64,000 nucleotides of DNA, taken from assembly GCF_004777465.1 (NCBI RefSeq), contig NZ_CP038462.1, positions 372,001 to 436,000 of the forward strand. The letters are read 5' to 3'. The stretch comes from Nocardioides daphniae (GTDB taxonomy: Bacteria; Actinomycetota; Actinomycetes; Propionibacteriales; Nocardioidaceae). Positions 1,726-28,457 of this stretch are shown one piece after another (the stretch's first letter is position 1; every line of letters starts with the position of its first letter). Below the pieces are notes generated by a model that saw nothing but the letters and a program-made list of their open reading frames with translations, was not told where the DNA came from and made no database searches. The position numbers and the translations under genes are program-made.

Positions 1726-1741
1726 GTCTCGGATCCGAGAC
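1726..1741. promoter_or_regulatory. Palindromic operator, copy 1 (hut regulon)
   Basis: GTCTCGGATCCGAGAC is a perfect 16-bp inverted repeat between the IclR gene (ATG 7 bases away) and hutH (ATG 54 bases away). The inner 14 bp recur exactly at 8111-8124 and 24580-24593, each time upstream of histidine-degradation genes. The right flank is also partly kept (GCCCGGCG here, GCACGGCG at copy 2). Binding by the neighbouring IclR protein is inferred. Confidence 0.8.
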
Positions 1742-1795
1742 GCCCGGCGTCAACGGTGACCCGCCGCGCCCGGGCGCCCGACGCACGATGGAGCC

Positions 1796-3355
1796 ATGCA
1801 GACCACCACCCCCCACGTCCGGGTCGGCACCGGCCCTGTCTCCTTCACCGAGCTCGTCGCCGTCGCCCGCCACGGCGCCGGCGTGACCCTGGCCGACGAC
1901 GCCGTCGCCGCGATCGAGCGGGCCCGCGGCGTCATCGACACGCTCGCCGAGGCCGAGACCCCCTCCTACGGCGTCAGCACCGGCTTTGGGGCGCTGGCCA
2001 CCCGGCACATCCCCGTGGAGCTGCGCGCCCAGCTGCAGCGCTCGCTGGTCCGCTCGCACGCCGCCGGCTCCGGGCCCGAGGTGGAGCGCGAGGTGGTCCG
2101 CGCGCTGATGCTGCTGCGGCTGTCGACGCTCGCGACGGGGCACACCGGCGTACGCATGCCCACCGCGCAGCTGATGGCCGACCTGCTCACCCACGGCATC
2201 ACCCCGGTCGTGCGCGAGTACGGCTCGCTCGGCTGCTCCGGCGACCTGGCGCCGCTCTCGCACTGCGCGCTCGCGCTGATCGGCGAGGGCGAGGTGCGTG
2301 ACGCCGCCGGCGAGCTGATGCCCGCGGCGCAGGCGCTGGCCGCCGCCGGGCTGGAGCCCGTCGAGCTCGCCGCCAAGGAGGGACTGGCGCTGATCAACGG
2401 CACCGACGGGATGCTCGGCATGCTGGTGATGGCGATCAGCGACCTCGACCTGCTGCTGCGCACCGCCGACGTCGCTGCGGCGATGAGCGTCGAGGGGCTG
2501 CTCGGCACCGACCGGGTCTTCGCGCCCGACCTCCAGGCCGTTCGCCCGCACCCCGGCCAGGCGGCCTCCGCCGCCCACCTCCTCGCGCTGCTGGAGGGCT
2601 CCGAGGTTGTCGCGTCGCACCGTACGCCGGACTGCACGCGCGTCCAGGACGCGTACTCGCTGCGCTGCTCGCCGCAGGTGCACGGCGCCGCCCGCGACAC
2701 CGTCGACCACGCCCGGCTGGTCGCCGAGCGCGAGCTGGCCTCGGCCGTCGACAACCCGGTCGTGCTCGGCGACCGGGTCGAGTCCAACGGCAACTTCCAC
2801 GGGGCACCGGTGGCCTACGTGCTCGACTTCCTGGCGATCGTCGCCGCCGACGTCGCCTCGATCTCCGAGCGGCGCACCGACCGCTTCCTCGACCCGGCGC
2901 GCAACCACGGGCTGCCGCCCTTCCTGGCGCACGACCCCGGCGTCGACTCCGGCCACATGATCGCCCAGTACACCCAGGCCGCGATCGTCTCGGAGCTCAA
3001 GCGGCTCGCGGTGCCGGCGTCGGTGGACTCGATCCCCTCCAGCGCCATGCAGGAGGACCACGTGTCGATGGGCTGGTCGGCCGCCCGCAAGCTGCGTCGC
3101 AGCGTCGACGGCCTGACCCGCGTGGTGGCGATCGAGGTGCTGACCGCTGCCCGCGGCCTGCAGCTGCGGGCACCCCTGCGGCCGGCGCCGGCGACCGGCC
3201 GGGTCGTCGAGCTGCTGCGTGAGGCGGGCGTCTCGGAGCCGGGTCAGGACCGCTGGCTGTCGCCCGAGATCGAGGCCGCGGTCGACCTCGTACGCTCGGG
3301 TGCGGTGCTCCGCGCAGCCGGCACCGGGGGCACCGGTGGCGCCCCGCTCGGCTGA
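1796..3355 (+). CDS. hutH: Histidine ammonia-lyase
   Basis: 519 residues. Catalyses the first step of histidine degradation, L-histidine to trans-urocanate plus ammonia, in the cytoplasm. The prosthetic-group region reads GSLGCSGDLAPLSH (around residue 145), so the MIO group would form from Cys-Ser-Gly rather than the more common Ala-Ser-Gly. Other family signatures are YGVSTGFGALA, ALINGTDGML and the C-terminal QEDHVSMGWSAA. The length is normal for the family. The start is the ATG 54 bases after the palindromic operator. hutU and hutF/hutI are elsewhere in the window but share the operator. The last 112 bases overlap the convergent HxlR gene, and both reading frames look genuine there. Confidence 0.95.
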   Translation: MQTTTPHVRVGTGPVSFTELVAVARHGAGVTLADDAVAAIERARGVIDTLAEAETPSYGVSTGFGALATRHIPVELRAQLQRSLVRSHAAGSGPEVEREVVRALMLLRLSTLATGHTGVRMPTAQLMADLLTHGITPVVREYGSLGCSGDLAPLSHCALALIGEGEVRDAAGELMPAAQALAAAGLEPVELAAKEGLALINGTDGMLGMLVMAISDLDLLLRTADVAAAMSVEGLLGTDRVFAPDLQAVRPHPGQAASAAHLLALLEGSEVVASHRTPDCTRVQDAYSLRCSPQVHGAARDTVDHARLVAERELASAVDNPVVLGDRVESNGNFHGAPVAYVLDFLAIVAADVASISERRTDRFLDPARNHGLPPFLAHDPGVDSGHMIAQYTQAAIVSELKRLAVPASVDSIPSSAMQEDHVSMGWSAARKLRRSVDGLTRVVAIEVLTAARGLQLRAPLRPAPATGRVVELLREAGVSEPGQDRWLSPEIEAAVDLVRSGAVLRAAGTGGTGGAPLG

Positions 3356-4002
3356 GCCGGGGCGAGCACCGACTGGCCGAACCACTCCGGCACGCGGCGG
3401 GCGACCGCCGGGAGGGCGTCGACCTGGACGCGTCCGCTGCGCAGCGCCTGCGACCAGCCGAGGTCGCCGCGCCAGACGTGGGTGAGGTCGCGCAGCGAGA
3501 CCCGCACCGTGGCGGTCACCTCGTGGCCGGGGTCGACGTCGCACGACTCCGCCCCGCCGTTCTTCACCACCAGCCACCAGTGGCGACGGCGCGGGGGCAG
3601 GTCGATGAACTCGAGCAGCACGCAGGTGGTGCCCGGCGGCCAGAGGTGGGTGGGCACCGTGCGCTGCACGTCCCACATCAGCAGGTGCGGGTCGAGGTCG
3701 CCGTCGCCGACGTCCTTGATCCACCGCTGCCCCCACATGCCCAGGTGCATGACGGCGGCGTGCAGGTCGCGGCCGCACTCGGTCAGCTCGTAGCCGAGCT
3801 CGGTGCGCGCCACGATGCCGACGCGCTCGAGGGAGCGCAGCCGGGTCGCCAGGAGAGACGGTGACATCCGGGGCACTCCCCGGCGCAGTTCGTTGAAGTG
3901 GGTGCTGCCCAGGAGCAGCTCACGGATCACGAGGACGGTCCACCGCTCGTCAAGGAGCTCCATGGCCTTGGCGACGGGACAGAACTGGCTGTACGTGGCC
4001 AT
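3244..4002 (-). CDS. HxlR-family transcriptional regulator with C-terminal sterol-carrier-like domain
   Basis: 252 residues. Residues 8-100 are the HxlR winged helix: CPVAKAMELLDERWTVLVIR at the N-terminus is diagnostic, followed by HFNELRRGVPRMSPSLLATR. Residues about 110-225 resemble the SCP2-like extension found in many actinobacterial HxlR proteins (VLLEFIDLPPRRRHWWLVV). The tail is Pro/Ala/Ser-rich and extends 112 bases into the 3' end of hutH on the opposite strand, so its last 37 residues are constrained by hutH coding. It is convergent to hutH and has no obvious target nearby. No ligand can be inferred. Confidence 0.85.
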   Translation of the reverse strand: MATYSQFCPVAKAMELLDERWTVLVIRELLLGSTHFNELRRGVPRMSPSLLATRLRSLERVGIVARTELGYELTECGRDLHAAVMHLGMWGQRWIKDVGDGDLDPHLLMWDVQRTVPTHLWPPGTTCVLLEFIDLPPRRRHWWLVVKNGGAESCDVDPGHEVTATVRVSLRDLTHVWRGDLGWSQALRSGRVQVDALPAVARRVPEWFGQSVLAPAQPSGAPPVPPVPAARSTAPERTRSTAASISGDSQRS

Positions 4003-4064
4003 CCCTCATCCTGACCCCGGCGCGACGGGTCGCGCCAGAGCCAGGATGGGGGAGGCGGGCGTCC

Positions 4065-7137: not shown

Positions 7138-8046
7138 TCAGTCCAGCCCGGCCAGGAACGCATCGGCCCCGGCGGTCATGAAGAGGTCGCTGACCGGACC
7201 GAACCAGAAGGCCGGGTCGAGGTCGCGCTCGAAGGTGATCGCCACCTCGGCGCGGCACCCCGCGTCGGTCTGCTCCCAGCTCAGGCGCCCCTCCTGCAGC
7301 GTCACCCAGCGGGTGGTGCGGGCGTCGTCGGCGGTGACGTCGAAGAGGATCGTGTCGTCGGCGCGGGCGCGGACCACGGTGCTGATGCCACCCATCGGCA
7401 TGGCGAGCTCCCACGTGTCGCCGACCGCCAGGCCGGTGCCCTCGGCCGACTGCGGGGTGGGGTACTGCGCCAGGCGCAGCAGCCAGCCGCGGTCCTCCTG
7501 GTCGAAGGCGGGGCCGCGCTCGAGCCCCTCGGCGAACTGGGCGCAGTCGTCGGCGACGACGCGCTCGGCGCTCACCTCCTGCACCGGGTTGATGCGGGTG
7601 CCGGGCAGCGCCCCCTCCAGCGCGGCCAGCAGCACCACCCCACCCAGGGCCATCCGGTGGCCGATGCTGCGCGCCGCCTTGACCAGCGCCCAGATCCCGA
7701 AGGCCAGTCCGTAGACCAACGGGCTGACGATCAGCACGCAGAGCGCGCCCTCGTGGAGGAAGGCGGAGACCAGGAGCAAGGTCACCGTGATCACCTGGAA
7801 GAGCTGCGCGCCGCTGTCGTCCGACGGCATCACGCCGACCACCACGGCCAGCAGCACCGGGACGCCGACGAAGAAGAGGGCGGTGTCGAGGCGGCCGATG
7901 GCGCCGGCCAGGAGGGTCGCGGCCACGGCCACGGGGATGGCCGCGGTCAGCATCAGGGTGAGCCGGGCCCGGAACGGGCTGCTCCCGGCGGGCGGCTCCT
8001 CGTGGTCGGGAGCAGGGTACGGGTCGGTGTCGAGGTCGCGTGTCAT
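7138..8046 (-). CDS. Membrane protein with C-terminal SRPBCC-like domain
   Basis: 302 residues. A Pro/Asp-rich N-terminal tail of about 25 residues is followed by four or five membrane helices (about residues 30-155). Residues about 165-300 form a soluble domain resembling SRPBCC/polyketide-cyclase-type proteins ([50 protein letters not shown]). First gene of the TetR operon; the inverted repeat 8055-8073 begins 9 bases upstream of the ATG, leaving little leader, so transcription starts close to or inside the repeat. The function is unknown; a hydrophobic ligand or lipid would fit the fold. An alternative is that only the membrane part is functional. Confidence 0.6.
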
Positions 8047-8054
8047 GGGTTGAC

Positions 8055-8073
8055 CATATGTTTAAAACATATG
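8055..8073. promoter_or_regulatory. Inverted-repeat operator for the TetR membrane operon
   Basis: CATATGTTT-A-AAACATATG is a perfect 9+1+9 inverted repeat in a short AT-rich island in otherwise GC-rich DNA. It is 9 bases upstream of the first gene of the operon ending in tetR, and a partial third half-site (ATATGTT) extends to 8075. Size and place fit autoregulation by the operon's own TetR protein (inferred). It is also 37 bases from the hut operator that serves hutU in the other direction. Confidence 0.7.
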
Positions 8074-8109
8074 TTCAAACAAGTGGAACGCTCGGACTCG
8101 CCCCTACCC

Positions 8110-8125
8110 GTCTCGGATCCGAGAC
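8110..8125. promoter_or_regulatory. Palindromic operator, copy 2 (upstream of hutU)
   Basis: GTCTCGGATCCGAGAC, identical over all 16 bp to the copy between the IclR gene and hutH. It ends 47 bases before the hutU ATG, close to the 54-base spacing at hutH, so it probably marks the same position relative to the promoter. Confidence 0.8.
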
Positions 8126-8172
8126 GCACGGCGCTGGCGACTCACTTCCCCAGCCGCCGCCGGAGCGGTTGC

Positions 8173-9867
8173 ATGGCAGGCATGACCAGCAACCCGCGCC
8201 TCCCGATCCACGCCGCCACCGGCACCGAGCTGAGCGCCCGCTCCTGGCAGAGCGAGGCCGCGCTGCGGATGCTGATGAACAACCTCGACCCGGCCAACGC
8301 GGAGCGCCCCGAGGACCTCGTGGTCTACGGCGGCACCGGGCGTGCGGCGCGCAGCTGGGAGGCGTACGACGCCCTCGTGCGCACGCTGCGCACGCTCGCC
8401 GACGACGAGACCATGCTGGTCGCCTCGGGCAAGCCGGTCGGGGTGATGCGCACCCACGAGTGGGCGCCGCGGGTGCTGATCGCCAACTCCAACCTGGTCG
8501 GCGACTGGGCCAACTGGGAGGAGTTCCGCCGGCTCGAGGAGCTCGGGCTGACGATGTACGGCCAGATGACTGCGGGGTCGTGGATCTACATCGGCACCCA
8601 GGGGATCCTCCAGGGCACCTTCGAGACCTTCGCCGCGGTGGCTGACCGGCTCGCGGCCTCTGGCCGCTTCCCGCACAGCCACGGGACGCTGGCCGGCACG
8701 ATCACGCTGACCGCCGGCCTCGGCGGGATGGGCGGGGCGCAGCCGCTCGCCGTCACCATGAACGACGGCGTCGCGATCTGCGTCGAGGTCGACCAGTCGC
8801 GCATCGAGCGCCGCATCGAGCACCGCTACCTCGACGTGCAGGCCGACTCGTTGGAGCACGCCCTCTCCCTGGCCGAGGCGGCCCGCGACGCGCGGAAGCC
8901 GCTGTCGATCGGCCTGCTCGGCAACGCTGCCGAGGTCTTCCCGCGGCTGCTCGAGATGGGTGCCCCGATCGACGTGGTCACCGACCAGACCTCGGCGCAC
9001 GACCCGCTCTCCTACCTGCCGCTGGGCGTCGACGTGGCCGACTGGCACGAGGAAGCGCGCCGCGACCCGGCCGGCTTCACCGAGCGGGCGCGGGCGTCGA
9101 TGGCCGCCCACGTCGCCGCGATGGTCGGCTTCCTCGACGCCGGCGCGGAGGTCTTCGACTACGGCAACTCGATCCGCGACGAGGCCCGCAAGGGCGGCTG
9201 CGCGCGCGCCTTCGACTTCCCCGGCTTCGTGCCGGCCTACATCCGGCCGCTCTTCTGCGAGGGCCGCGGCCCCTTCCGGTGGGCGGCGCTCTCGGGCGAC
9301 CCGGCCGACATCGCCGCCACCGACCGTGCCGTGCTCGAGCTCTTCCCCGACAACGAGCGGCTGCACCGCTGGATCACCATGGCCCAGGAGCGGGTCTCCT
9401 TCCAGGGGCTGCCCGCCCGGATCTGCTGGCTCGGCCACGGCGAGCGCCACCTGGCCGGCCTGAAGTTCAACGAGATGGTGCGCAGCGGCGAGCTGAAGGC
9501 CCCGATCGTGATCGGGCGCGACCACCTCGACTGCGGCTCGGTGGCCTCGCCCTACCGCGAGACCGAGGCGATGAAGGACGGCTCCGACGCCATCGCCGAC
9601 TGGGCTGTGCTCAACGCCCTGGTCAACACCGCCTCGGGCGCCAGCTGGGTCTCCTTCCACCACGGCGGCGGCGTCGGGATGGGCCGCTCGCTGCACGCCG
9701 GGCAGGTCTGCGTCGCCGACGGCACCGACCTGGCCGCGCAGAAGCTGGAGCGCGTGTTGACCAACGACCCCGAGATGGGCGTCATCCGCCACGTCGACGC
9801 GGGCTACGAGCGGGCCGAGGAGGTTGCGCACGCCCACGGCGTACGCGTGCCGATGCGGGAGTCGTGA
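8173..9867 (+). CDS. hutU: Urocanate hydratase
   Basis: 564 residues. Converts urocanate to 4-imidazolone-5-propionate with tightly bound NAD+, the second step of histidine degradation. Seen: [17 protein letters not shown] near residue 50, [12 protein letters not shown], the Gly-rich [17 protein letters not shown], and the catalytic-cysteine region [20 protein letters not shown] near residue 455. The ATG at 8173 has GGAG seven bases upstream; a second in-frame ATG at 8182 is possible. The open frame extends far upstream of 8173 but only as antisense of the membrane operon. Not linked to other hut genes except through the shared operator. A strong hairpin terminator follows. Confidence 0.95.
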
Positions 9868-17404: not shown

Positions 17405-20305
17405 TTGCTGCTCGTGATCGCCGCGCTGTTCCTCCTCGCGGCGGTCTGCCCGTGGGCGTTACTGCGAGCGGGTCGTCGAGCTTTCCTGCCGATCGCCGCC
17501 GTGCCCCTGGCCGGGACGGTGTGGCTGGCGACGTACGGGCCCTCGGTCGCCGAGGGCGAGGTGCACACCCAGGTCGTGCAGTGGGTGCCCTCGATCAACC
17601 TCGAGCTCGCCTTCGCGATGGGCACCCTGCAGTGGGTGCTCGCGATGATCGTGCTCGGCATCGGTGCCGTGGTGCTGGCCTACTGCCGATGGTACTTCCA
17701 CGACGACAGCGCCGGGGTGCCGCGCTTCGCGGGCGTGCTGGTCGCCTTCATCGCCGCGATGCTCGGCCTCGTCCTGGCCGACGACCTGCTCCTGCTGTAC
17801 GTCTTCTGGGAGCTCACCACGGTCTTCTCGTTCCTGCTGGTGGGCCACGACCCCACCCGACGCAGCGCCCGCCAGGCCGCGATCCAGGCGCTGATGGTGA
17901 CCACGCTCGGTGGCCTGGCGATGCTGGTCGGAGCCCTTGCGCTGGCCCACCAGGCCGGCACGATGCGGATCAGCGAGATCCTGGCCGACCCGCCCAGCGG
18001 CACGCTGGTCACCGTCGGCGTGATGCTGCTGCTCGTCGGCGCCCTGTCGAAGTCGGCGCTCTTCCCCTTCCACTTCTGGTTGCCCGCGGCGATGGCCGCG
18101 CCCGCCCCGGTGAGCGCCTACCTGCACGCGGCGTCGATGGTGAAGGCCGGCGTCTACCTGGTCGCACTGCTCGCCCCCGCCTTCGCCGACGTGCCCGGAT
18201 GGCGCCCCACGCTCGTCGGGCTCGGCCTGCTGACGATGCTCATCGGCGGCCTGCGGGCGCTGCGGCAGAACGACCTCAAGCTGCTGCTCGCCTTCGGCAC
18301 CGTCAGCCAGCTTGGTTTCATGGTGCTGGTCCTGGGGCTCGGCACCCGCTCGGCGATGCTCGCCGGCTTGGGCTTGGTCGTGGCGCACGCGCTCTTCAAG
18401 GCCACGCTCTTCCTGGTCGTCGGCCTCATCGACCGCACCACCGGAACCCGCGACCTGCGCAAGCTCACCGGCCTCGGCCGCCGGATGCCGTGGGTCGCCG
18501 CGGCCGCCGCGCTCGCCGCCGCCTCGATGGCCGGCATCCCGCCGCTGGTCGGCTACGTCGCCAAGGAGAGCGTCTTCGTGGCGCTCGTCGACGTCGCCGA
18601 CTACGGCGAGGGCACCGGCATGGAGGGCGTGCTGGGCTGGCTGCTGCTGGTCGGCGTCCTGCTGGGCTCGGTGCTCACCGTCGCCTACTCCGCCCGCTTC
18701 GTCTGGGGTGCCTTCGCCGACCGCGAGGTCACCGAGGAGGTGCGGGTCACCGACGTGCCCGTCGGCTTCGCGGCCGGCCCGGTCCTGCTGGCCGCCCTCG
18801 GCCTCGTCGCCGGCTTCCTCGGCAGCGCACTGACGTATGTCCTCGCGCCGCACGCCGAGCTCCTCCCGGAGGGTGCCCACCATGCCGAGCTCTCGCTGTG
18901 GCACGGGGTGGGGCTGCCGCTGGCCGCGACGGTCGTGGCGCTGGGGGTGGGTGCGCTGCTCTTCGTCGCTCGCGGCCCCGTCCAGACCCTCCAGGGCGCG
19001 CTGGCGCTCGACGTCTCCCTGGAGAACGGCTACCGCGCGACCATGCGCGGCCTCGACCGCTTCGCCGTCGAGCTGACCGCCGTCGTGCAGCGCGGTTCCG
19101 CGGCGGCGTACCTCGGCATCACCCTGCTCGTCGTGGTCCTGGTGCCGGGCTCGACGTTGCTGCGCACCTACGACTCCATCGACGTGCGGCTGTGGGACAC
19201 CCCCTACCAGGCGGTCGTCGGCGGCGTGATCATGCTCGCCGCGGTGATGGCCACCCGCTCGCGTCGCCGCCTGCGCGCGGTGCTGCTGGCCGGCGCCACC
19301 GGCTACGGCACCGCGGCGCTCTTCGTGCTGCACGGGGCGCCCGACCTGGCGCTGACCCAGGCGCTGGTCGAGACGCTGACCGTCGTGGTCTTCGTGCTGG
19401 CGCTGCGCCGGATGCCCGAGTACTTCACCGACCGGCCGCTGAGCGCACGCCGCTACTGGCGGGTGGCGCTGGGTGCCTCCGTCGGCCTGGTCGCCGCCGG
19501 TTTCATGCTGGTCGGCGCGAGCGCCCGCATCCACGAGCCCGTCTCCGCGGCCCTGCCGAGGCTGGCGGTCGACTACGGCGGCGGTGCCAACATCGTCAAC
19601 GTCATCCTCGTCGACACCCGCGCGTGGGACACCTTCGGTGAGATCGCCGTCCTGGTCGCCGCCGGCACCGGCGTGGCCAGCCTGATCTTCCTCGACGTCC
19701 GTGGCACCGGCATCCGCCGCGTCCACGAGATCCCCTTCCCCGAGGGTGTCTCCAAGCAGCCGACCGCGCCGGGCCGCCGGGTGTGGCTGCCCGCGCCGCG
19801 CACCATGACCCCGGACAAGCGCTCGATCATCTTCGAGGTCATCACCCGGCTGCTCTTCCACACGATCATCGTCTTCAGCGTCTACCTGCTCTTCGCTGGC
19901 CACAACGCGCCCGGCGGCGGCTTCGCCGGCGGCCTGACCGCGGGCCTGGCGCTGGTCCTGCGCTACCTGGCGGGCGGGCGCTACGAGCTCGACGAGGCCG
20001 CCCCCATCGACGCCGGCAAGGTGATCGGTGCCGGGCTCGCCTTCGCCGCCCTGGCCGCCGTCGTCCCGCTGGCCTTCGGAGGCACCGTCCTGCAGTCCGC
20101 GATCGTCGACCTCACCGTGCCGCTGATCGGCAAGGTCCACCTGGTCTCCTCCGCGCTCTTCGACGTCGGCGTCTACCTGGTCGTGCTCGGCCTGGTCCTC
20201 GACCTGCTGCGCGGCCTCGGCTCGCAGATCGACCGGCAGATCGTGAAGGTCCAGCGCGCGGCTGCCGAAGCAGCGGCCGAGGCGGCCGAGGGGAGTGCCC
20301 GATGA
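17405..20305 (+). CDS. mrpA: Mrp Na+/H+ antiporter subunit A fused to subunit B
   Basis: 966 residues. The first 740 or so form MrpA, a NuoL-like proton channel with about 20 helices; ALFPFHFWLPAAMAAPAPVS and YLHAASMVKAGVYLVAL are the proton-pumping signature and LKLLLAFGTVSQLGF follows. Residues about 800-950 are the MrpB domain (FHTIIVFSVYLLFAGHNAPG, GGFAGGLTAGLALVL). The A-B fusion is common in actinobacteria. The start is a TTG at 17405 after GAGAGG; a GTG three codons later is possible. A TAGGAT -10-like hexamer is at 17357-17362. Heads an operon of six genes with stop/start overlaps. Confidence 0.95.
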   Translation: MLLVIAALFLLAAVCPWALLRAGRRAFLPIAAVPLAGTVWLATYGPSVAEGEVHTQVVQWVPSINLELAFAMGTLQWVLAMIVLGIGAVVLAYCRWYFHDDSAGVPRFAGVLVAFIAAMLGLVLADDLLLLYVFWELTTVFSFLLVGHDPTRRSARQAAIQALMVTTLGGLAMLVGALALAHQAGTMRISEILADPPSGTLVTVGVMLLLVGALSKSALFPFHFWLPAAMAAPAPVSAYLHAASMVKAGVYLVALLAPAFADVPGWRPTLVGLGLLTMLIGGLRALRQNDLKLLLAFGTVSQLGFMVLVLGLGTRSAMLAGLGLVVAHALFKATLFLVVGLIDRTTGTRDLRKLTGLGRRMPWVAAAAALAAASMAGIPPLVGYVAKESVFVALVDVADYGEGTGMEGVLGWLLLVGVLLGSVLTVAYSARFVWGAFADREVTEEVRVTDVPVGFAAGPVLLAALGLVAGFLGSALTYVLAPHAELLPEGAHHAELSLWHGVGLPLAATVVALGVGALLFVARGPVQTLQGALALDVSLENGYRATMRGLDRFAVELTAVVQRGSAAAYLGITLLVVVLVPGSTLLRTYDSIDVRLWDTPYQAVVGGVIMLAAVMATRSRRRLRAVLLAGATGYGTAALFVLHGAPDLALTQALVETLTVVVFVLALRRMPEYFTDRPLSARRYWRVALGASVGLVAAGFMLVGASARIHEPVSAALPRLAVDYGGGANIVNVILVDTRAWDTFGEIAVLVAAGTGVASLIFLDVRGTGIRRVHEIPFPEGVSKQPTAPGRRVWLPAPRTMTPDKRSIIFEVITRLLFHTIIVFSVYLLFAGHNAPGGGFAGGLTAGLALVLRYLAGGRYELDEAAPIDAGKVIGAGLAFAALAAVVPLAFGGTVLQSAIVDLTVPLIGKVHLVSSALFDVGVYLVVLGLVLDLLRGLGSQIDRQIVKVQRAAAEAAAEAAEGSAR

Positions 20306-21027
20306 GCGCCACGACGACCGTCGAGACCCTGGTCCGTGCCGCCGGCGGCGGAGGCGGCACCGTCGCCCCCACCGGCGACGTCAACCTCACCCTCGTCGCG
20401 ATCTCGGCCGGCCTGATCGGCTGCGGGGTCTACCTTCTGCTCGAGCGCAGCCTCTCGCGGGTGCTGGTCGGCCTGGTGATGATGGGCAACGGCGTCAGCC
20501 TCGGCTTCCTGGTCGCCGGGGGACCGGCGGGCGAGGCGCCGATCGTCGACGGCGACGCGGGGACGTACGTCGACCCCCTGCCGCAGGCGATGGTGCTCAC
20601 CGCGATCGTGATCATGCTGGCGACGGTCTCGTTCGTGCTGGCGATGGCCTACCGCTCCTGGCAGCTCGCCGGCCACGACGACGTGCAGGACGACGTCGAG
20701 GACGCCCTCATCCGCCGGATGGCCGCCAAGGACATCGAGTCCGACTCCTTCCGCGCCGAGACCACCGAGGACGTCGAGCAGCTCGACCTGGCCTCCGACT
20801 TCACCGTCGCCGAGCTCGCCGAGGCCGCCGAGGCGGCCGAGCGGGCCGAGGCCCAACGGCTCCTGGCCGAGCAGCACGCCGCCGAGCAGGAGGCCGCTGC
20901 CCGCTGGGCCGAGGAGAAGGCCGCGCAGGAGCGCGAGGCCCAACGGGCCAAGGGCGAGAAGCACGCCGGCCAGAGCGACCCGCACGACCAGCATGACCAG
21001 CCCGGCGACGAGGAGGACGAGAAGTGA
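20302..21027 (+). CDS. mrpC: Mrp antiporter subunit C with long charged C-terminal extension
   Basis: 241 residues. Residues about 25-120 are MrpC, a NuoK-like protein with three helices (GVYLLLERSLSRVLVGLVMM, GVSLGFLV, QAMVLTAIVIMLATVSFVLA). Typical MrpC ends near residue 110-130; here a further 115 residues are acidic, then Ala/Glu/Arg-rich and helical (residues about 175-220, likely coiled coil), ending in an Asp/Glu/His tail. Its ATG overlaps the mrpA stop (ATGA) and its stop overlaps the mrpD GTG. The tail is probably cytoplasmic and may contact other subunits. Confidence 0.9.
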   Translation: MSATTTVETLVRAAGGGGGTVAPTGDVNLTLVAISAGLIGCGVYLLLERSLSRVLVGLVMMGNGVSLGFLVAGGPAGEAPIVDGDAGTYVDPLPQAMVLTAIVIMLATVSFVLAMAYRSWQLAGHDDVQDDVEDALIRRMAAKDIESDSFRAETTEDVEQLDLASDFTVAELAEAAEAAERAEAQRLLAEQHAAEQEAAARWAEEKAAQEREAQRAKGEKHAGQSDPHDQHDQPGDEEDEK

Positions 21028-22714
21028 ACTGGCTCGTCCCCTTCCCCGTCATCCTGCCGCTCCTGGGCGCCGGCCTCTCGCTCGTGCTCTCGGGGCGGCC
21101 GCGCCTCCAGCGCTGGCTCAGCGTCGCGGTCCTGCTGGCGATGGGCGTGGTCGCCGCGGTGCTCATGGTCCAGGCCGACACCTCCGGTCCGCAGACGCTG
21201 TGGGTCGGGGCGTGGCCGGAGACCGTCGGCATCGTGCTGGTGGCCGACCGCCTGGCCTCGCTGATGCTGCTGGTCAGCGCCGTCGTGACGCTGGCGGTCC
21301 TCGGCTACTCCATCGGTCAGGGCATGGTCGAGGACGAGGAGTCGGCGCCGCTGGCCGTCTACCACCCGACCTTCCTGGTGCTGGTGGCCGGCGTCGCCAA
21401 CGCGTTCCTGGCGGGCGACCTCTTCAACCTCTTCGTCTCCTTCGAGATGCTGCTCTTCGCGTCCTACGTGCTGCTCACCCTCGGCGGCACCGACGCGCGC
21501 ATCCGCGCCGGCACGATCTACGTCCTCGTCGCGCTGCTGTCGTCGTCGCTCTTCCTGATCACCCTGGCGGTGACCTACGCGACGACCGGCACCCTGACCC
21601 TGGCGCACCTGGGGGAGCGGCTGGCCCAGGTCGACCCCGACGTGTCGCTGATGATCCAGCTGCTCCTGCTGACGACCTTCGCGATCAAGGCGGCGGTCTT
21701 CCCGCTGTCGTTCTGGCTGCCCGACTCCTACCCGACCGCGCCTGCCCCGGTCACCGCGGTCTTCGCCGGCCTGCTGACGAAGGTCGGTGTCTACGCGATC
21801 CTGCGCATGCAGATGGTGCTCTTCCCCGACTCGCCGCTGACCGACCTGCTGCTGTGGGTGGCGCTGCTGACGATGCTGATCGGCATCCTCGGCGCCATCG
21901 CACAGAGCGACATCAAGCGCATGCTCTCCTTCACCCTGGTCAGCCACATCGGCTACCTGGTGCTCGGCATCGCGGTCAGCGGCCAGCACGGCGTCGCCGG
22001 CACCATCTTCTACGTCGTCCACACATCACCGTGCAGACCGCGCTCTTCCTGGTGGTCGGGCTCGTGGAGCGCCGCGCCGGCTCGACCTCGCTGCTGCGCA
22101 TCGGCGGCCTGGCCCGGATCGCCCCGCTGCTCGCGGTGCTCTTCTTCGTCCCTGCGATGAACCTGGCCGGCATCCCGCCCTTCTCCGGCTTCATCGGCAA
22201 GGTGGGCCTGATCCAGGCGACCATCGACCTCGGCACCCCGCTCGCCTGGGCGCTGGTCGTCGGCGGCGTGCTGACCAGCCTGCTCACCCTGTACGCGGTC
22301 GCGAAGACCTGGTCGGTCGTCTTCTGGCGCACGCCGGAGGAGGCGCACGAGGCGCTGGTCGAGCTCAACGCGCTCGACGCGCAGCCGTCGCTGTCGCGGC
22401 GTACGCGTGCCACCGAGCACCGCGGCCACCTGCACACCCCCGACGGCGTGGTCCCGGCCGCCAACATCGCGGAGGCCCAGCAGGTCACCGACGCCGACGT
22501 CGACGAGATGGACTTCCACCAGCTGATCGCCACCGACCGTGACACCAAGCACCTGCCGATCAGCATGCTCGGCCCCGCCGCCACGCTGGTCGCGGTCACG
22601 GTGGCGCTGACCGTGGTCGCCGGCCCGCTCTACGCCTACAGCGAGCGGGCGGGCGCCGACCTCGTCGAGGGCCGCGCCTACGTCGAGGCCGTGCTGGGCG
22701 GTGACGACCGATGA
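21024..22714 (+). CDS. mrpD: Mrp antiporter subunit D (frameshifted)
   Basis: Restored length about 563 residues; NuoM/N-like proton-translocating subunit. Intact signatures: FNLFVSFEMLLFASYVLL, AAVFPLSFWLPDSYPTAPAP, GLLTKVGVYAILRM. At about 22023 a C is missing: GTCGTCCA(C)CACATCACC, which separates IFYVVH from HITVQTALFLVVGLVERRAG. The rest of subunit D continues normally, with a charged loop of about 80 residues before the last helix. A loss in a core subunit of an otherwise perfect operon is most easily a sequencing error. The GTG start overlaps the mrpC stop and the stop overlaps the mrpE ATG. Confidence 0.9.
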
Positions 22715-23265
22715 GCCCGCAGATGCGCACGACCCGCAGCGGCAAGCTCCGCCCGGCGCGCTACCGCGCGATCCAGCCGTGGCCGATGCTGTGGCTGGTC
22801 CTCTTCTGGGTGGGCCTGTGGGGCACCTGGTCGCCCGGCATCGTGCTGCTCGGCGTGGTCGTCGCCGCGCTGGCGTCGTACGCCTTCCCGCTGCCGCCGG
22901 TCTCGATCGGCGCGCGCGTGCGGCTGCTGCCGCTGGCGTGGCTGGTGCTGCACTTCCTGTACGACGTGGTGAAGGCCAGCGTGCTGGTCTCGATCGTGGT
23001 GCTGCGACGCCGACCGGTGCGCAACGCGATCGTCACCGTCGACCTGCAGTCCGACTCCGACTTCGTGCTGACCGCGGTGGGCGCGATGCTCACGCTGGTG
23101 CCGGGGTCGATCATCGTGGAGGCGCGACGCTCCACGCACACCCTCTTCCTGCACGTGCTCGACGTCGACGACGTCGCCGGCGCGGAGGCATTCCGTCAGC
23201 AGGCCCTGGCCGTGGAGGAGCGCTTCCTGGCCGCCTTCGAACCGATCCCGGAGGAGGCGCGATGA
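22711..23265 (+). CDS. mrpE: Mrp antiporter subunit E
   Basis: 184 residues. Two or three N-terminal membrane helices (MLWLVLFWVGLWGTWSPGIV) followed by the MrpE cytoplasmic domain: FLYDVVKASVLVSIVVL, LTAVGAMLTLVPGSIIVEA and HTLFLHVLDVDD. An N-terminal basic tail of about 20 residues is present. The start ATG overlaps the mrpD stop by ATGA. Structural subunit of the Mrp complex, needed for assembly in characterised systems. Confidence 0.9.
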   Translation: MSPQMRTTRSGKLRPARYRAIQPWPMLWLVLFWVGLWGTWSPGIVLLGVVVAALASYAFPLPPVSIGARVRLLPLAWLVLHFLYDVVKASVLVSIVVLRRRPVRNAIVTVDLQSDSDFVLTAVGAMLTLVPGSIIVEARRSTHTLFLHVLDVDDVAGAEAFRQQALAVEERFLAAFEPIPEEAR

Positions 23266-23576
23266 CCCCGATGGGTGTGGTCCTGCTGGTCTCGGCGGCG
23301 CTGCTCACCGTCGCTGCCGTGCTGGTGGTGGTGCGGATGACCGTCGGCCCGACGATCCTCGACCGCTCGATGGCCCTCGACGTGCTGATGTCGGTGATGG
23401 TCTGCGCGGTCGCGCTCAAGTCGATCCAGCGCGAGGAGACCTGGTCGTTGCCGATGCTGCTGGTGCTGGCGATGGTCGGCTTCGTCGGCGCGGTCTCGAT
23501 CGCCCGGTTCGCCAGCGGCACCGAGGACGAGGAGGCGCGTGACGACGACGACGCCCGTGAGGGGGAGGAGCGGTGA
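23262..23576 (+). CDS. mrpF: Mrp antiporter subunit F
   Basis: 104 residues with three membrane helices. MTVGPTILDRSMALDVL is the MrpF/PhaF signature (conserved Gly-Pro and Asp-Arg). The C-terminal 20 residues are very acidic (GTEDEEARDDDDAREGEE), like the tail of MrpC. Overlaps mrpE by ATGA and mrpG by GTGATG. Confidence 0.9.
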   Translation: MTPMGVVLLVSAALLTVAAVLVVVRMTVGPTILDRSMALDVLMSVMVCAVALKSIQREETWSLPMLLVLAMVGFVGAVSIARFASGTEDEEARDDDDAREGEER

Positions 23577-23953
23577 TGGACGGAGTCGACGCTGCTGCCG
23601 TGATGGACGTCGCCTCGGCGGTGCTGCTGCTGGTGGGCTCGGTCTTCGCGCTCATCGCCGCCATCGGCGTGGTGCGCCTGCCCGACCTGCTCAGCCGGAT
23701 GCACGCCGCCACCAAGCCCCAGGTGATCGGCCTGATGCTGGTGGTCTCCGGGTTGGCGCTGCGCCTGCGTGACCCGTCGGTCCTGGCGATCCTGCTCTTC
23801 GTGGTGATCCTGCAGATGGCGACCAGCGTGGTGTCGAGCCACATGGTGGCGCGGGCCTCCTTCCGCGCCGGCCACGTGCGGAAGGACCTGCTGGTCGTCG
23901 ACGAGCTGAGCGACGAGCTCACCGACGGGTTGGACCACCGCGGCGCGCCGTAG
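23573..23953 (+). CDS. mrpG: Mrp antiporter subunit G
   Basis: 126 residues with three membrane helices; VVRLPDLLSRMHAATKPQVI is the MrpG hallmark, followed by the helix ILLFVVILQMATSVVSSHMV. The start is GTG 23573 or the ATG directly after it, overlapping the mrpF stop. Last gene of the operon, ending 9 bases before the convergent nitroreductase stop with no room for a long terminator. The complex exchanges Na+ for protons for pH and salt homeostasis. Confidence 0.9.
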   Translation: MMDGVDAAAVMDVASAVLLLVGSVFALIAAIGVVRLPDLLSRMHAATKPQVIGLMLVVSGLALRLRDPSVLAILLFVVILQMATSVVSSHMVARASFRAGHVRKDLLVVDELSDELTDGLDHRGAP

Positions 23954-23962
23954 CCCCGCACC

Positions 23963-24562
23963 TCACCACTGACCACGGTGGACGACCTCGTCCACCGGCC
24001 TGCGCGGCCGCCGGGTGGGCGAGCCGCGCCGCGGTGCCTCGGCCGGGTGGCCGATCGCCACGGCGCCGATCGGGGCGTACGCCGCCGGCACGCCGAACTC
24101 GGCACGGAAGGCCTCGACCTGCTCCACCGGGATCCCGAAGAAGCAGGCGCCCAGCCCCTCGTCGACGGCGGTGAGCAACACCATCAGCGACGCCATCCCG
24201 GTGTCGACGAACCAGTACGGCGCGACCCAGCGGCCCTCGTCGCGGTCGGTCCAGCCCTTGTCGGGCTCGGCGTAGCGGTCGAGGTAGGCGTCCTTGTGGG
24301 CCAGCGGCACCACGATCGCCGGAGCGCTGCGCATGCCGCGCAGCCAGGCGTTGTCGGCGTCGGGGTCGGGCGAGGTGGCGCGCCAGAAGCGGGCGACGTC
24401 GTCGGGGGTGTCGAGGCGCAGGAAGGCCCAGCCCTGCGAGAAGCCGGCGCTCGGGGCGCGGGTCGCGTGGTCGAGCATCCGGTCGAGCGCCGCGGGCGGC
24501 ACGGGCTCGGCGGTGAACGAGCGGACCATGCGTCGGCGGCGTACGACCTCGCGGAACTCCAT
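23963..24562 (-). CDS. Nitroreductase-family FMN protein
   Basis: 199 residues. N-terminal FREVVRRRRMVRSFTAEPVP is the usual FMN-contact start (R-x-M-R-x-F), ATRAPSAGFSQGWAFLRLD binds the flavin phosphate, and MASLMVLLTAVDEGLGACFF is the second flavin segment. PIGAVAIGHPAEAPRRGS ends the core, and a basic tail follows. Possibly an NAD(P)H- or F420H2-dependent oxidoreductase; substrate unknown. Divergent from the hut M20-hutF-hutI operon. The hut palindrome lies 17 bases upstream of this ATG, so it may also be under hut control. Confidence 0.8.
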   Translation of the reverse strand: MEFREVVRRRRMVRSFTAEPVPPAALDRMLDHATRAPSAGFSQGWAFLRLDTPDDVARFWRATSPDPDADNAWLRGMRSAPAIVVPLAHKDAYLDRYAEPDKGWTDRDEGRWVAPYWFVDTGMASLMVLLTAVDEGLGACFFGIPVEQVEAFRAEFGVPAAYAPIGAVAIGHPAEAPRRGSPTRRPRRPVDEVVHRGQW

Positions 24563-24579
24563 GCGCCCATCCTCGCCGA

Positions 24580-24593
24580 TCTCGGATCCGAGA
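24580..24593. promoter_or_regulatory. Palindromic operator, copy 3 (upstream of M20-hutF-hutI)
   Basis: TCTCGGATCCGAGA, the same 14-bp perfect palindrome as at hutH and hutU (the outer base pair differs here). The next downstream ATG, at 24650, is 56 bases away, matching the 54- and 47-base operator-to-start gaps at the other two sites, although the gene itself starts later at 24693. Confidence 0.8.
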
Positions 24594-24645
24594 CTCCGGG
24601 CGTGGCCCCGGTCGTTGACCGACGGGGCGGCGGAGGGTTGGCTGT

Positions 24646-24704
24646 GCGCATGAGGTCGAGGCGCATGGGGTCAAGCGCATGAGGTCGAGCGCATGAGGTT
24701 CGAG
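24646..24704 (+). repeat. Four tandem GCGCATGAGGTCGA units at the start of the hut operon
   Basis: Units at 24646-24660, 24661-24674, 24675-24688 and 24689-24704, of 14-16 bases with small changes, each carrying ATGAGG or ATGGGG. The fourth contains the start codon of the M20 gene. Because the period is not a multiple of three, the first and third units open mini-frames of 10 and 5 codons (24650-24682 and 24679-24696) that each end in an ATGA overlap with the next start. Confidence 0.7.
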
Positions 24705-25926
24705 GCGATGTGGAAGGACCTGGCGCCGCTGGGTCGCGCGGCGCACGGGGGCTACTTCCGCCAGCCCTTCACCGCCGTCGACCACGAGCTGCGGCACTGG
24801 TTCCGCACGGCCGCGGAGGACCGGTCGATGACCGTCGAGGAGGACGACTTCGGCAACCTCGTCGCCTGGTGGGGCGGTGTCGCGACCGCCGAGCGGCCCG
24901 GGCTGCTGACCGGCTCGCACCTCGACTCGGTGCTCGACGGAGGGGCGTACGACGGCCCGCTCGGCGTGGTCTCCGCGTTCGCCGCGGTCGACCTGCTGCA
25001 GGCGCGCGGCGTGGTGCCGATCCGCCCGCTCGGGGTGGCCGCCTTCGCCGAGGAGGAGGGGTCGCGTCGGGGTGGCCTGCCTGGGCTCGCGGCTGGCCAC
25101 CGGCGCCTGGTCGTGGGAGGAGGCCCGCAAGCTGCGTGACCGCGACGGGGTCTGGCTGCGCGACGCGATGGCCTCGGTGCTGGCCCACCCGGGTGGCACC
25201 GACGCCGACCACCTCACCCGCCGTGACCCGCACGAGCGGCGACGCGCGTGGGTGGCGCGCGTGGCGGCGTACGTCGAGCTCCACGTCGAGCAGGGACGCG
25301 ACCTCGTCGAGCGGGGGGCCGCGGTCGGGCTCGGCAGCGGGATCTGGCCGCACGGGCGCTACCGCTTCGACTTCACCGGGCAGGCCAACCACGCCGGGAC
25401 GACCCGGATGGAGGACCGCCACGACCCGATGCTGACCTATGCGATGACCGCCCTGGCGGCCAACAAGCAGGCGCGGCTGGGCGGTCACCGGGCCACCTTC
25501 GGCCGGATCGAGGTGGCGCCCAACGGCACCAACGCCGTGCCCTCGCGGGTGACCGCGTGGCTGGACGCGCGCGCCGCGACGACGCCCGCGCTGCAGGAGC
25601 TGGTGGCGACCGTCAGCGACCAGGCCGAGCAGCGGGCCGGGCGCGACGGCACCGCGCTGGTCGTCACGCCCGAGTCGGTGAGCGCGGAGGTCACCTTCGA
25701 TGCGGCGCTGACCGAGCTGGCGGGGGAGGGCCACCGGTGGCCGGTGATCCCGACGGCGGCCGGCCACGACGCCGGCGTGGTGGCGCAGGCCGGGGTGCCG
25801 ACCGCGATGCTGTTCGTCCGCAACCCGACCGGGATCTCGCACTCGCCCGACGAGCGCGCCGAGACCGAGGACTGCCTGGCCGGCGTCGAGGCGCTGGCCG
25901 ACGTGCTGGAGCGGTTGCTGCGGTGA
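24693..25926 (+). CDS. M20 amidohydrolase (allantoate amidohydrolase / N-carbamoyl-amino-acid hydrolase type) of the hut operon (frameshifted)
   Basis: Restored length about 411 residues. N-terminal part: LLTGSHLDSVLDGGAYDGPL (metal-binding His and Asp), then AAFAEEEGSR (catalytic Glu). Near 25057 two bases are missing, after which GVACLGSRLATGAWSW continues; relatives read EEGSRFGVACLGSRL here. The later ELHVEQGRDL, GQANHAGTTRMEDRHDP and TAAGHDAGVVAQ fit the family. First gene of the operon with hutF and hutI, 13 bases before hutF, and preceded by a hut operator. No hutG is present, so I infer it removes formate from N-formylglutamate, or acts on formiminoglutamate. True allantoate hydrolysis is less likely here. 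Confidence 0.8.
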
Positions 25927-25939
25927 GCGGCGTGGGGCG

Positions 25940-27291
25940 GTGAGCGAGGCGTACGTCCTGGAGCGGGCGTGGGTCGACGGCGCGGTGCGCGACGACGTGC
26001 TGGTCGAGGTGGCCGGCGGGCGGTTCAGCCGGGTCGAGACCGAGCCCTCGGGGGAGGGCGACACGTCCCGGGCGGGCGCGACCCGGATCGAGGGGCTGGT
26101 CCTGCCGGGGCTGGCCAACACGCACAGCCACGTCTTCCACCGCGCGCTGCGCGGGCGTACGCAGCGGGGGCGCGGCAGCTTCTGGACGTGGCGCGAGCAG
26201 ATGTACGACCTGGCCGCGCACCTCGACCCCGACCAGCTGCACGCGCTGGCGCGGGCGACGTACGCCGAGATGGTCGCCGCGGGTATCAGCTGCGTCGGCG
26301 AGTTCCACTACCTGCACCACCGGCCCGACGGTGGGCCCTACGACGACCCCAACCTGCTCGGACATGCGCTGGTCGCGGCGGCGGTCGACGTCGGCCTGCG
26401 GATCACGCTGCTCGACACGGTCTACCTGTCGGCCGGGTTCGGCCAGCCGGTCGAGGGGGTGCAGCGGCGCTTCAGCGACGGTGACGTCGACGCGTGGGCG
26501 ACGCGGCAGGCGGCGATGCAGGCCTCGCTCGTGCCCCGGACAGACTCGCGCAGCGGCACCGCCATCCACTCGGTGCGGGCGGTGCACCGAGACCAGCTGG
26601 CCGACGTCGTGGCGGCCGGGGTCGGGCGGCCGCGTCACGTGCACCTGTCGGAGCAGGTCGCCGAGAACGAGACCTGCATGGCGGCGTACGGCGCCAGCCC
26701 GACGCACGTGCTGCACGCGGCGGGGGTGTGGGGGCCGCTGACCAGCGCCGTGCACGCGACCCCCTGACGGCGGGCGACATCGCGACCCTGGGTGACTCGC
26801 GGGCGTTCGTGAGCTTCTGCCCGACGACCGAGCGTGACCTGGCCGACGGCACCGGGCCGGCGCCGGCGCTGCGGGCGGCGGGGGCGCGGTTGACGTTGGG
26901 GTCGGACAGCCATGCCGTGATCGACCTCTTCGAGGAGATGCGCGCGGTCGAGCTGGACGAGCGGCTGGCGACCCGCACCCGCGGCCACTTCACGGCCGCC
27001 ACGCTGCTCGAGGCGGCGACCACCACCGGGCACGGGAGCCTGGGGTGGGACGACGCGGGCGCAATCGCGGTCGGCCACCGTGCCGACCTGGTGGTGCTCG
27101 ACACCGCCTCGCCGCGGACGGCGGGCACGGGCGCCGACGAGCACACCGCGGTCTTCGCGGCGACGGCCGGCGACGTACGCCGCGTGATGACCGACGGGGT
27201 GTGGCGCTTCACCGGTGACCCCGGCGAGGTGGCCGCCGTCGGGCAGCGGCTGGACCGGGTCATCGCGCAGGTGTGGGAGGGCGTCGGATGA
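25940..27291 (+). CDS. hutF: Formimidoylglutamate deiminase (frameshifted)
   Basis: Restored length about 450 residues; amidohydrolase-superfamily enzyme converting N-formimino-L-glutamate to N-formyl-L-glutamate and ammonia. GTG start at 25940. Motifs: [18 protein letters not shown] (metal His-x-His), [27 protein letters not shown] (metal His), and [18 protein letters not shown] (metal Asp). At about 26757 one A is missing in GCGACCC(A)CCTGACG, so AVHAT no longer runs into [11 protein letters not shown]; the lost codon is a conserved His. The gene is otherwise complete, and its stop overlaps the hutI ATG, arguing for a sequencing error. Confidence 0.9.
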
Positions 27292-28457
27292 GCACGACTT
27301 CCATGAGCACCGTCGTCACCGGGATCACCGAGCTGGTCACGAACGATCCTGCGCGCGACGGGCTGCTCGGCGTGGTGGCTGGGGCGGCGCTCGTGGTCGC
27401 GGGCGACCGGGTGGCGTGGGTCGGCCCGGAGGCCGAGGCGCCGGCGGCGGACCTGCGCGTCGACCTGGGCGGTCGCGCCGTGGTGCCGGGCTTCGTCGAC
27501 TCGCACTCGCACATGGTCTTCGCGGGTGACCGCGGTGAGGAGTTCGCGGCCCGGATGGCCGGGGAGCCGTACGCCGCCGGTGGCATCCGCAGCACGGTGG
27601 CGGCGACCCGGGCGGCGAGCGACGAGGTGTTGACGGCGCAGGTCGCGCGGCTGGTGGCGGAGATGCGACGGCAGGGCACGACGACGGTCGAGATCAAGAG
27701 CGGCTACGGGTTGAGCGTGCGCGACGAGGCGAGGAGCCTGGCGGTGGCGCGGCAGTTCACCGAGGAGACGACCTTCCTCGGGGCGCACGTGGTGCCGACG
27801 GGGGTGACGCCGGAGGCGTACGTCGCCGAGGTGACGGGTCCGATGCTCGCCGCGGCCGCCCCGTGGGCGAAGTGGATCGACGTCTTCTGCGAGACGGGTG
27901 CCTTCGACGTCGACCAGGCGCGTGAGGTGCTGGCCGCGGGGGCGGCGGCCGGGCTGCGGGGGCGGCTGCACGCCAACCAGCTGTCGGAGGGCGGCGGGGT
28001 GCAGCTGGCCTGCGAGCTGGGGCTGGTCGCGGTCGATCACTGCACGTACCTCTCGGAGGCCGACGTCGCCGCGCTCGCGGGCTCGGGCACGGTGGCGACG
28101 CTGCTGCCGGGTGTGGAGTTCTCGACGCGGCAGCCCTACCCGGATGCGCGGCGGTTGCTGGCCGCCGGCGTACGCGTGGCGCTGGCCACCGACTGCAACC
28201 CAGGCTCGTGCTTCACCTCGTCGATGCCGTTCTGCGTGGCGTTGGCGGTGCGGGAGATGGGGATGACGCCGGAGGAGGCGCTGTACGCCGCCACGGCCGG
28301 CGGTGCCGCGGCGCTCGACCGCGACGACGTCGGCTGGTTGGGGGTGGGGTCACAGGCGGACTTCGCGGTGCTGGACGCGCCGAGCCACCTGCACCTGGCC
28401 TACCGGCCGGGCGTGCCGCTGGTGAGCCAGACGTGGGTGGGCGGGCGGCCGGCCTGA
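27288..28457 (+). CDS. hutI: Imidazolonepropionase
   Basis: 389 residues from the ATG that overlaps the hutF stop (ATGA). Hydrolyses 4-imidazolone-5-propionate to N-formimino-L-glutamate, third step of histidine degradation. Motifs: [20 protein letters not shown] (zinc His-x-His), [16 protein letters not shown] (substrate loop), [18 protein letters not shown] (zinc His), [16 protein letters not shown] (zinc Asp). Normal length, no frameshift. Last gene of the operon. Confidence 0.95.

What the first reader, a model, noticed from the sequence alone, without database searches (positions are those of the whole stretch)
1726..28457. Dispersed histidine-utilisation regulon marked by an exact 14-bp palindrome
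TCTCGGATCCGAGA occurs at 1727-1740, 8111-8124 and 24580-24593 and I saw it nowhere else in the window. The sites precede hutH, hutU and the M20-hutF-hutI operon respectively, and the first lies in the divergent gap next to an IclR-family gene. Operator-to-ATG distances are similar (54, 47 and 56 bases to the first ATG). This defines a hut regulon spread over 27 kb with an IclR-type regulator rather than the classical HutC or HutP. The link of site to regulator is inference from position.
Basis: partly seen in the sequence, partly recalled or inferred. Interest (0 to 1): 0.72.

Follow-up and report, generated by a model that had tools for sequence, protein, structure and literature searches.

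The report
Histidine-breakdown switch shared across actinomycetes
Three identical short DNA palindromes mark the start of three separate groups of histidine-breakdown genes, and comparison with related genomes indicates that they are very probably docking sites for one IclR-type protein, HutR, which most likely switches the genes on; it is a well-supported new case of a known kind of control.

Summary
TCTCGGATCCGAGA occurs exactly three times in the 3.56-Mb genome, before hutH, hutU and the M20-hutF-hutI unit. In a 118-genome sample of the genus a box close to GTCTCGGATCCGAGAC precedes hutH in 91 of 91 genomes that keep the IclR orthologue and have DNA held, and in 0 of 18 hutH genomes that lack it or have only a 59% homologue. 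It also precedes the hutI unit in 61 of 63 split layouts. None of the 118 has the regulator without hutH. An IclR protein beside hutH in a Corynebacterium-like genome finds this protein as its best match here (one-way), and the known HutR motif of Corynebacterium resistens has the same layout. The kind of control is therefore known. Comparison adds geometry: core promoter elements at fixed distance put the box near -62, which suggests activation, and the box follows hutH, not the regulator gene. Transporter genes carry boxes in some relatives. Binding, inducer and activation remain untested.

The parts
957..1718 (-). HutR: IclR-family regulator (253 aa), divergent from hutH
   Evidence: Pfam IclR_C and HTH_IclR; best match in the window genome of an IclR gene that lies beside hutH in a Corynebacterium-like genome (one-way)
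1726..1741 (.). HutR box 1, GTCTCGGATCCGAGAC, upstream of hutH and 7 bp from the hutR start codon
   Evidence: box at hutH in 91 of 91 genomes with the orthologue and DNA held
1784..1789 (+). predicted -10 element of hutH (CACGAT), at the conserved offset from the box; no clear -35
   Evidence: by comparison
1796..3355 (+). hutH, histidine ammonia-lyase
   Evidence: NCBIfam TIGR01225, above cut-off
8110..8125 (.). HutR box 2, GTCTCGGATCCGAGAC, upstream of hutU
   Evidence: genomes with detached hutU have a box there in 10 of 14, with adjacent hutU in 1 of 73, window included
8169..8174 (+). predicted -10 element of hutU (TTGCAT)
8182..9867 (+). hutU, urocanate hydratase (start 8173 also possible)
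   Evidence: NCBIfam TIGR01228, above cut-off
24579..24594 (.). HutR box 3, ATCTCGGATCCGAGAC, upstream of the M20-hutF-hutI unit
   Evidence: box at this unit in 61 of 63 genomes with split layout
24615..24620 (+). predicted -35 element (TTGACC)
   Evidence: TTGAC at this offset in 47 of 61 genus promoters of this unit
24638..24643 (+). predicted -10 element (TTGGCT)
   Evidence: TGGACT at this offset in 51 of 61
24693..25926 (+). M20-family amidohydrolase gene, frame broken near 25,072
   Evidence: two pieces together span profile NF006770
25940..27291 (+). hutF, formimidoylglutamate deiminase gene, frame broken near 26,763
   Evidence: two pieces together span profile NF006681
27273..28457 (+). 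hutI, imidazolonepropionase
   Evidence: NCBIfam TIGR01224, above cut-off

Best explanation
The IclR-family protein at 957-1718 is HutR, the actinobacterial regulator of histidine utilisation. A dimer (or a pair of dimers) binds the palindrome GTCTCGGATCCGAGAC, present once in front of each hut transcription unit, so one regulator controls three units spread over 27 kb. Most likely it activates: the box is centred about 62 bp upstream of the predicted transcription start, 18-20 bp before a -35 element that is weak at hutH, where a bound protein could contact RNA polymerase, and at hutH the start codon follows the -10 almost at once (short or no leader). Where hutR lies divergently next to hutH, as here, the same box overlaps the hutR start region and probably also represses hutR. 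Shown: sequence, positions, counts, co-occurrence, joint absence, spacing of sequence elements. Inferred: binding by this protein, transcription starts, activation, the inducer (histidine or urocanate) and autorepression.
For: Exactly 3 copies genome-wide, all at hut units. 118-genome sample: 95 genomes have the regulator and hutH, 15 have hutH only, 0 the regulator only, 8 neither. Box at hutH with at most 4 mismatches in 16: 91 of 91 with the orthologue, 0 of 15 without any match, 0 of 3 with only a 59% homologue. Both traits need 8 changes on the hutH tree, in the same rows. hutI unit: 61 of 63 split genomes have the box at 2 mismatches or fewer; 0 of 23 compact operons and 0 of 9 regulator-less split genomes do. 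hutU: 10 of 14 detached genes have a box, 1 of 73 adjacent ones. Geometry: TTGAC at +34 to +36 in 47 of 61, background 0; TGGACT at +57 to +59 in 51 of 61, background maximum 1; hutH -10-like hexamer in 87 of 91, background mean 11.4; promoters outside the genus 22 of 29, background mean 2.4. A Corynebacterium-like IclR protein beside hutH has this protein as best match in the window genome: 45%, E 8e-49, next hit 5e-9. HutR motif of C. resistens GTCTGWWATWCCAGAC; [quoted passage not shown]
Against: No binding or expression data for this protein. Orthology to corynebacterial HutR rests on a one-way best match; the reverse search was run only with a Mycolicibacterium homologue. The two Corynebacterium-like loci held lack the palindrome. 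G009 and G087 keep the regulator but show no box upstream of the hutI unit; 4 of 14 detached hutU genes lack one. The looser word GTCTNNNATNNNAGAC occurs in 7 of 23 genomes without the regulator, against 92 of 95 with it; its reversed control occurs in 11 of 118. The window's own hutH and hutU promoters have no good -35 at the conserved offset. Conserved columns partly reflect shared descent. On well-supported tree branches only one independent pair remains. Nine Streptomyces loci with a homologue show no box. One relative has a box before a tryptophan dioxygenase gene.
Confidence: 0.85

Rival explanations
1. HutR binds the boxes but acts as a classical repressor of the hut units, released by histidine or urocanate, as HutC does.
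For: IclR-family proteins include repressors and dual regulators (PMC8222616, passage). In 24 of 25 genomes with hutR within 300 bp of hutH (window included) the box lies 7-130 bp from the hutR start, fit for autorepression.
Against: The box lies 18-20 bp upstream of the -35 at a fixed spacing in two different promoters, not over the core promoter. A secondary source states that C. resistens HutR activates.
Confidence: 0.15
2. The palindrome is the site of a different regulator encoded elsewhere, and the IclR gene is a bystander.
For: The orthologue can lie hundreds of kb from hutH (4 genomes). In the 49 genomes with a distant or unlinked hutH and DNA held, a box never stays with the regulator gene (of those 4, two were held).
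Against: Presence of the orthologue predicts the box perfectly in 109 genomes. The known HutR motif has the same layout. GTCTG-type boxes occur near 51-59% homologues in G005, G080 and G001, though two 49-50% homologues (G014, G085) showed none.
Confidence: 0.03
3. The three copies are a repeat or a restriction-type word with no regulatory role.
For: The core contains GGATCC, a common restriction word (recalled).
Against: 3 copies against 0.007 expected, all at hut promoters; strict spacing to promoter elements.
Confidence: 0.01

Closest known systems
HutR of Corynebacterium resistens DSM 45100 (IclR family; Schroeder et al. 2012, primary paper not held)
   Same: IclR-type protein beside hut genes; 16-bp palindrome GTCT-N8-AGAC with central AT; an IclR gene beside hutH in a Corynebacterium-like genome has this protein as its best match here
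   Different: Here GTCTC/GAGAC half-sites instead of GTCTG/CAGAC; three dispersed units instead of one cluster; hutF plus an M20 gene instead of hutG (hutG in C. resistens)
HutC (GntR family) hut regulator of Pseudomonas (family named in the listing)
   Same: Local control of histidine-use genes
   Different: Different protein family: the window regulator has IclR domains, no GntR domain
IclR-family regulators of the GTNCG-N5-6-CGNAC motif group (PobR, PcaU, MhpR and others)
   Same: Motif group to which PMC8222616 assigns HutR; tandem sites about 20 bp apart, which that paper reports for many IclR-family proteins, also occur in relatives here
   Different: Mostly other pathways (aromatic compounds)

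Membership tests
HutR (IclR-type hut regulator) | IclR-family domains: helix-turn-helix plus IclR effector domain | tested here: met
   Pfam PF09339 and PF01614 above cut-off
HutR (IclR-type hut regulator) | Gene linked to hut genes | tested here: met
   About 78 bp divergent from hutH here; found only together with hutH in 118 genomes
HutR (IclR-type hut regulator) | Orthology to corynebacterial HutR | tested here: inconclusive
   One-way best match only, 45% identity, large gap to the second hit; source genomes unnamed, 2.0-3.0 Mb, in the family of Mycolicibacterium xanthum; the C. resistens protein itself was not compared
HutR (IclR-type hut regulator) | Binding motif GTCTGWWATWCCAGAC upstream of hut genes | tested here: met
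   Same layout with C for G at position 5 and its mirror; the G form is found in other genera. Two Corynebacterium-like loci lack it
HutR (IclR-type hut regulator) | Demonstrated DNA binding and activation of hut genes | not testable with these tools
   Needs gel shift and expression assays
HutC (GntR family) | GntR-type DNA-binding domain | tested here: not met
   IclR domains only
Class I activator promoter (recalled concept) | Activator site centred near -61 to -62 upstream of a promoter | tested here: inconclusive
   Consistent predicted spacing; transcription starts not mapped

The most novel reading that the evidence does not exclude
HutR is an ancient activator of the class Actinomycetes that works from one fixed position (box centre near -62) on near-leaderless hut promoters. 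The regulon is held together by one box per transcription unit as the cluster breaks up, has been lost together with its boxes several times, and also includes NCS1-family permeases that would be unrecognised histidine or urocanate importers.
Probability: 0.5. Interest if true: 0.5.

Novelty: new member of a known kind. Interest (0 to 1): 0.42.

Why it matters
It turns a positional guess into a testable regulon for a widespread pathway. In the listings and passages I saw IclR-type hut control in this class was described only for Corynebacterium. It gives a clean example of a regulon that follows its genes as an operon breaks up, with regulator and sites missing together, and it names candidate transporters.

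Tried and rejected
A regulator replacing HutR in the regulator-less genomes: ORFs upstream of hutH were listed in 10 loci of such genomes, and 10 of those ORFs, from 6 of the loci, were scanned with Pfam. Six had no family; hits were an MFS and an EamA transporter, an M48 peptidase and, in G111, a LuxR-type response regulator about 3.9 kb from hutH. No shared candidate; open.

A conserved box at the regulator's own promoter: rejected, 0 of 49 genomes with a distant or unlinked hutH and DNA held; 18 further orthologue genomes had no suitable DNA.

A single recognition-helix residue that separates GTCTC from GTCTG readers: looked at by eye, none clean, not computed.

A fourth box in the window genome (1,864,966): set aside, inside a long ORF.

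Script error: I mis-oriented minus-strand loci of L063-L092 (14 rows read wrongly); found and corrected, whose numbers are used. Rows dropped for lack of DNA: G047 at hutH; G008, G010, G037, G065, G011 and G071 at hutU; G008, G020, G075, G115 and G030 at the hutI unit. 19 of 100 IclR genes were not held.
Full report
OBSERVATION. TCTCGGATCCGAGA is at 1727-1740, 8111-8124 and 24580-24593 and nowhere else in the window. In the whole 3,558,816-base genome there are exactly these 3 copies and 0 of the reversed control, against about 0.007 expected from base composition. hutH, hutU and hutI pass curated NCBIfam cut-offs; hutF and the M20 gene each match their families in two pieces that together span the profile. 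Genes between the hut units that were scanned and matched a family belong to other functions, e.g. an Mrp-type Na+/H+ antiporter set at 17,405-23,953, an MFS transporter and HpcH/HpaI-type lyases.

GENUS-LEVEL TEST. In 118 genomes of the genus (the tool's even draw, window genome included) the exact 14-mer occurs in 35 genomes, 49 copies. All 35 have the IclR gene (Fisher P 2e-4). 44 of 49 copies lie at hut units: 19 within 140 bp of the aligned start of hutH, 3 within 110 bp of hutU, 22 at 2.3-3.6 kb upstream of hutI. The IclR gene (E up to 1e-30) is in 95 genomes, hutH in 110, hutU in 107, hutI in 107. 95 genomes have IclR and hutH, 15 hutH only, 0 IclR only, 8 neither. The looser word GTCTNNNATNNNAGAC occurs in 92 of 95 genomes with the IclR gene and 7 of 23 without; its reversed control in 11 of 118 (my tally).

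Allowing mismatches to the 16-mer GTCTCGGATCCGAGAC in the 300 bp upstream of the aligned hutH start, the 91 genomes with the orthologue and DNA held (of 92; G047 lacked DNA) give 0 mismatches in 17, 1 in 48, 2 in 18, 3 in 6 and 4 in 2, at a median of 64 bp for those with 3 or fewer. The 15 genomes without the gene give 5-7 mismatches, as do 3 genomes with only a 59% homologue; shuffled sequences average about 6.2-6.3. Fisher P is 6e-21, but rows are related. On a hutH tree both traits need 8 changes and coincide in every row; many nodes are weak, and only one independent pair lies on strongly supported branches, so the number of losses is uncertain.

ONE BOX PER TRANSCRIPTION UNIT. Where hutI is far from hutH, 61 of 63 genomes with the orthologue have a box (2 mismatches or fewer) in the 4.5 kb upstream of hutI; the exceptions are G009 and G087. 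In compact hutH-to-hutI operons 0 of 23 have such a second box (one 3-mismatch hit), and in split genomes without the regulator 0 of 9. In 60 of those 61 the M20 gene lies downstream of the box: 38 with a gap of 54-98 bp, 21 with about 0.7 kb (room for one more gene) and 1 with 1.8 kb; G106 has hutF but no M20 match. hutU carries its own box (3 mismatches or fewer) in 10 of 14 genomes where it is detached from hutH and in 1 of 73 where it is adjacent. The window is an extreme case, with three units and three boxes.

THE BOX FOLLOWS hutH, NOT THE REGULATOR. When the regulator lies within 300 bp of hutH (25 genomes), 24 have the box in the gap as seen from the regulator (G079, with another orientation, does not). 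In the 49 genomes with DNA held where they are farther apart or on different contigs, 0 keep a box within 300 bp of the regulator's start. Autoregulation is therefore probably a by-product of adjacency, though likely in the window, where the box is 7 bp from the hutR start codon. An exception outside this genus: 13 loci of two genera in the mycobacterial family have a further box before hutR.

PROMOTER GEOMETRY. Aligned on the box (positions 0-15), downstream columns reveal core promoter elements at fixed spacing, in sequence that is 72.5% G+C in the window. At the hutI unit TTGAC starts at +34 to +36 in 47 of 61 promoters (background 0) and TGGACT at +57 to +59 in 51 of 61 (background maximum 1). 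At hutH CTGG near +34 occurs in 58 of 91 (background mean 1.4) and a -10-like hexamer at +57 to +59 in 87 of 91 (background mean 11.4). In 29 loci outside the genus, all chosen because they have a box, 22 show T....T at +57 to +59 (background mean 2.4), and the next ATG or GTG is at +69 to +71 in 20 of the 27 that show one. With a -10 at 58-63 the start falls near +70, placing the box centre near -62. That position suits an activator touching RNA polymerase, and start codons near +70 imply very short or no leaders. The comparison with class I activators is recalled knowledge. In the window the third promoter fits well (TTGACC, 17 bp, TTGGCT); hutH and hutU have a -10-like element but a poor -35.

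WIDER DISTRIBUTION. In 345 genomes of the class the IclR gene (E up to 1e-45) is found in 112 and hutH (E up to 1e-130) in 212. Of 34 class loci examined, 23 have a box of the form GTCY-N3-AT-N3-RGAC within 450 bp of the regulator, 15 of these with a GTCTG left half. Of 80 named loci returned by a collection scan (best 80 of 581), 56 have hutH within the DNA held, 50 a box within 500 bp of the regulator, 41 both, 15 hutH without box, 9 box without hutH, 15 neither. Genera with a box include Amycolatopsis, Saccharopolyspora, Actinomadura, Kribbella and Mycolicibacterium; the nine Streptomyces loci show none.

KNOWN RELATIVE. PMC8222616 (passages and one section read) lists HutR of Corynebacterium resistens with motif GTCTGWWATWCCAGAC. 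PMC3350403 (passages) reports hutR, an IclR-family gene, in all corynebacterial hut clusters it compared. [quoted passage not shown] resistens. The primary paper is not held. A regulator adjacent to hutH in an unnamed Corynebacterium-like genome (genus g128, 2.0-3.0 Mb; the label is my inference from family and size) finds the window protein as its best match in the window genome (45%, 8e-49; next 5e-9). The reverse direction was run only with the Mycolicibacterium protein. The two Corynebacterium-like loci held lack the palindrome, so the site has diverged or been lost there. I conclude that the window protein is most likely HutR; binding is inferred.

EXTRA TARGETS. Of the 5 exact copies not at hut enzymes, two precede NCS1-family permeases (77% identical to each other) in G060 and G066; one precedes an amino-acid ABC transporter set in G080; one lies before a tryptophan 2,3-dioxygenase gene in G115; one in G068 lies between regulator and hutH and was not resolved. 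A third NCS1 gene, in G001, has a GTCTG-type box. These loci were looked at because they have a box or lie near the regulator, so frequency is unknown.

MECHANISM AND PATHWAY. By established chemistry hutH, hutU, hutI and hutF lead from histidine to N-formylglutamate; the M20 gene is the natural candidate for the last cleavage, but its family name (allantoate amidohydrolase) rests on similarity only. HutR sensing histidine or urocanate is inference.

VERDICT. The finding is real and the regulator assignment is strongly supported. It is a new member of a known kind (HutR regulon), with a useful new description of its geometry, its dispersal and its joint loss.

Noticed in passing
window 22,000-26,770: Three genes in under 5 kb show single frame changes (an mrpD-like gene near 22,010-22,050, the M20 gene near 25,072, hutF near 26,763), which looks more like assembly indels than three pseudogenes.
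   Followed up: partly
window 24650-24706: Four near-copies of a roughly 14-bp unit (ATGAGGTCGAGCGC-like) between the predicted transcription start and the M20 start give a chain of tiny ORFs overlapping as ATGA; read by eye.
   Followed up: no
window 8053-8080: A separate A/T-rich inverted repeat (around CATATGTTTAAAACATATG) lies before the divergent gene 7138-8046, near box 2; it may be a site of another regulator (by eye).
   Followed up: no
L279 near 1902-2016, L168 near 8403-8548, L356 near 7490-7609: HutR-type boxes about 94-108 bp before NCS1-family permease genes in three genomes suggest these are histidine or urocanate importers.
   Followed up: partly
L280 near 2565-2580: A box (ATCTCGGATCCGAGAA) precedes an amino-acid ABC transporter set, with a -10-like TAGAGT just before the binding-protein gene.
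   Followed up: partly
L281 near 2001-2014: An exact palindrome about 55 bp before a tryptophan 2,3-dioxygenase gene, at the end of the upstream ORF.
   Followed up: no
L472-L484: In two genera of the mycobacterial family, pairs of boxes 20 bp apart stand before hutH and a further box before hutR, with both genes on one strand.
   Followed up: no
loci upstream of hutI in 21 split genomes (among L203-L278): About 0.7 kb, room for one more gene, lies between the box and the M20 gene in 21 of 61 split genomes; the gene was not identified.
   Followed up: no
L133, L139, L145, L150, L161, L163, L169, L188, L200, L202: Loci of genomes with hutH but neither HutR nor box; what controls hut there was not found.
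   Followed up: partly
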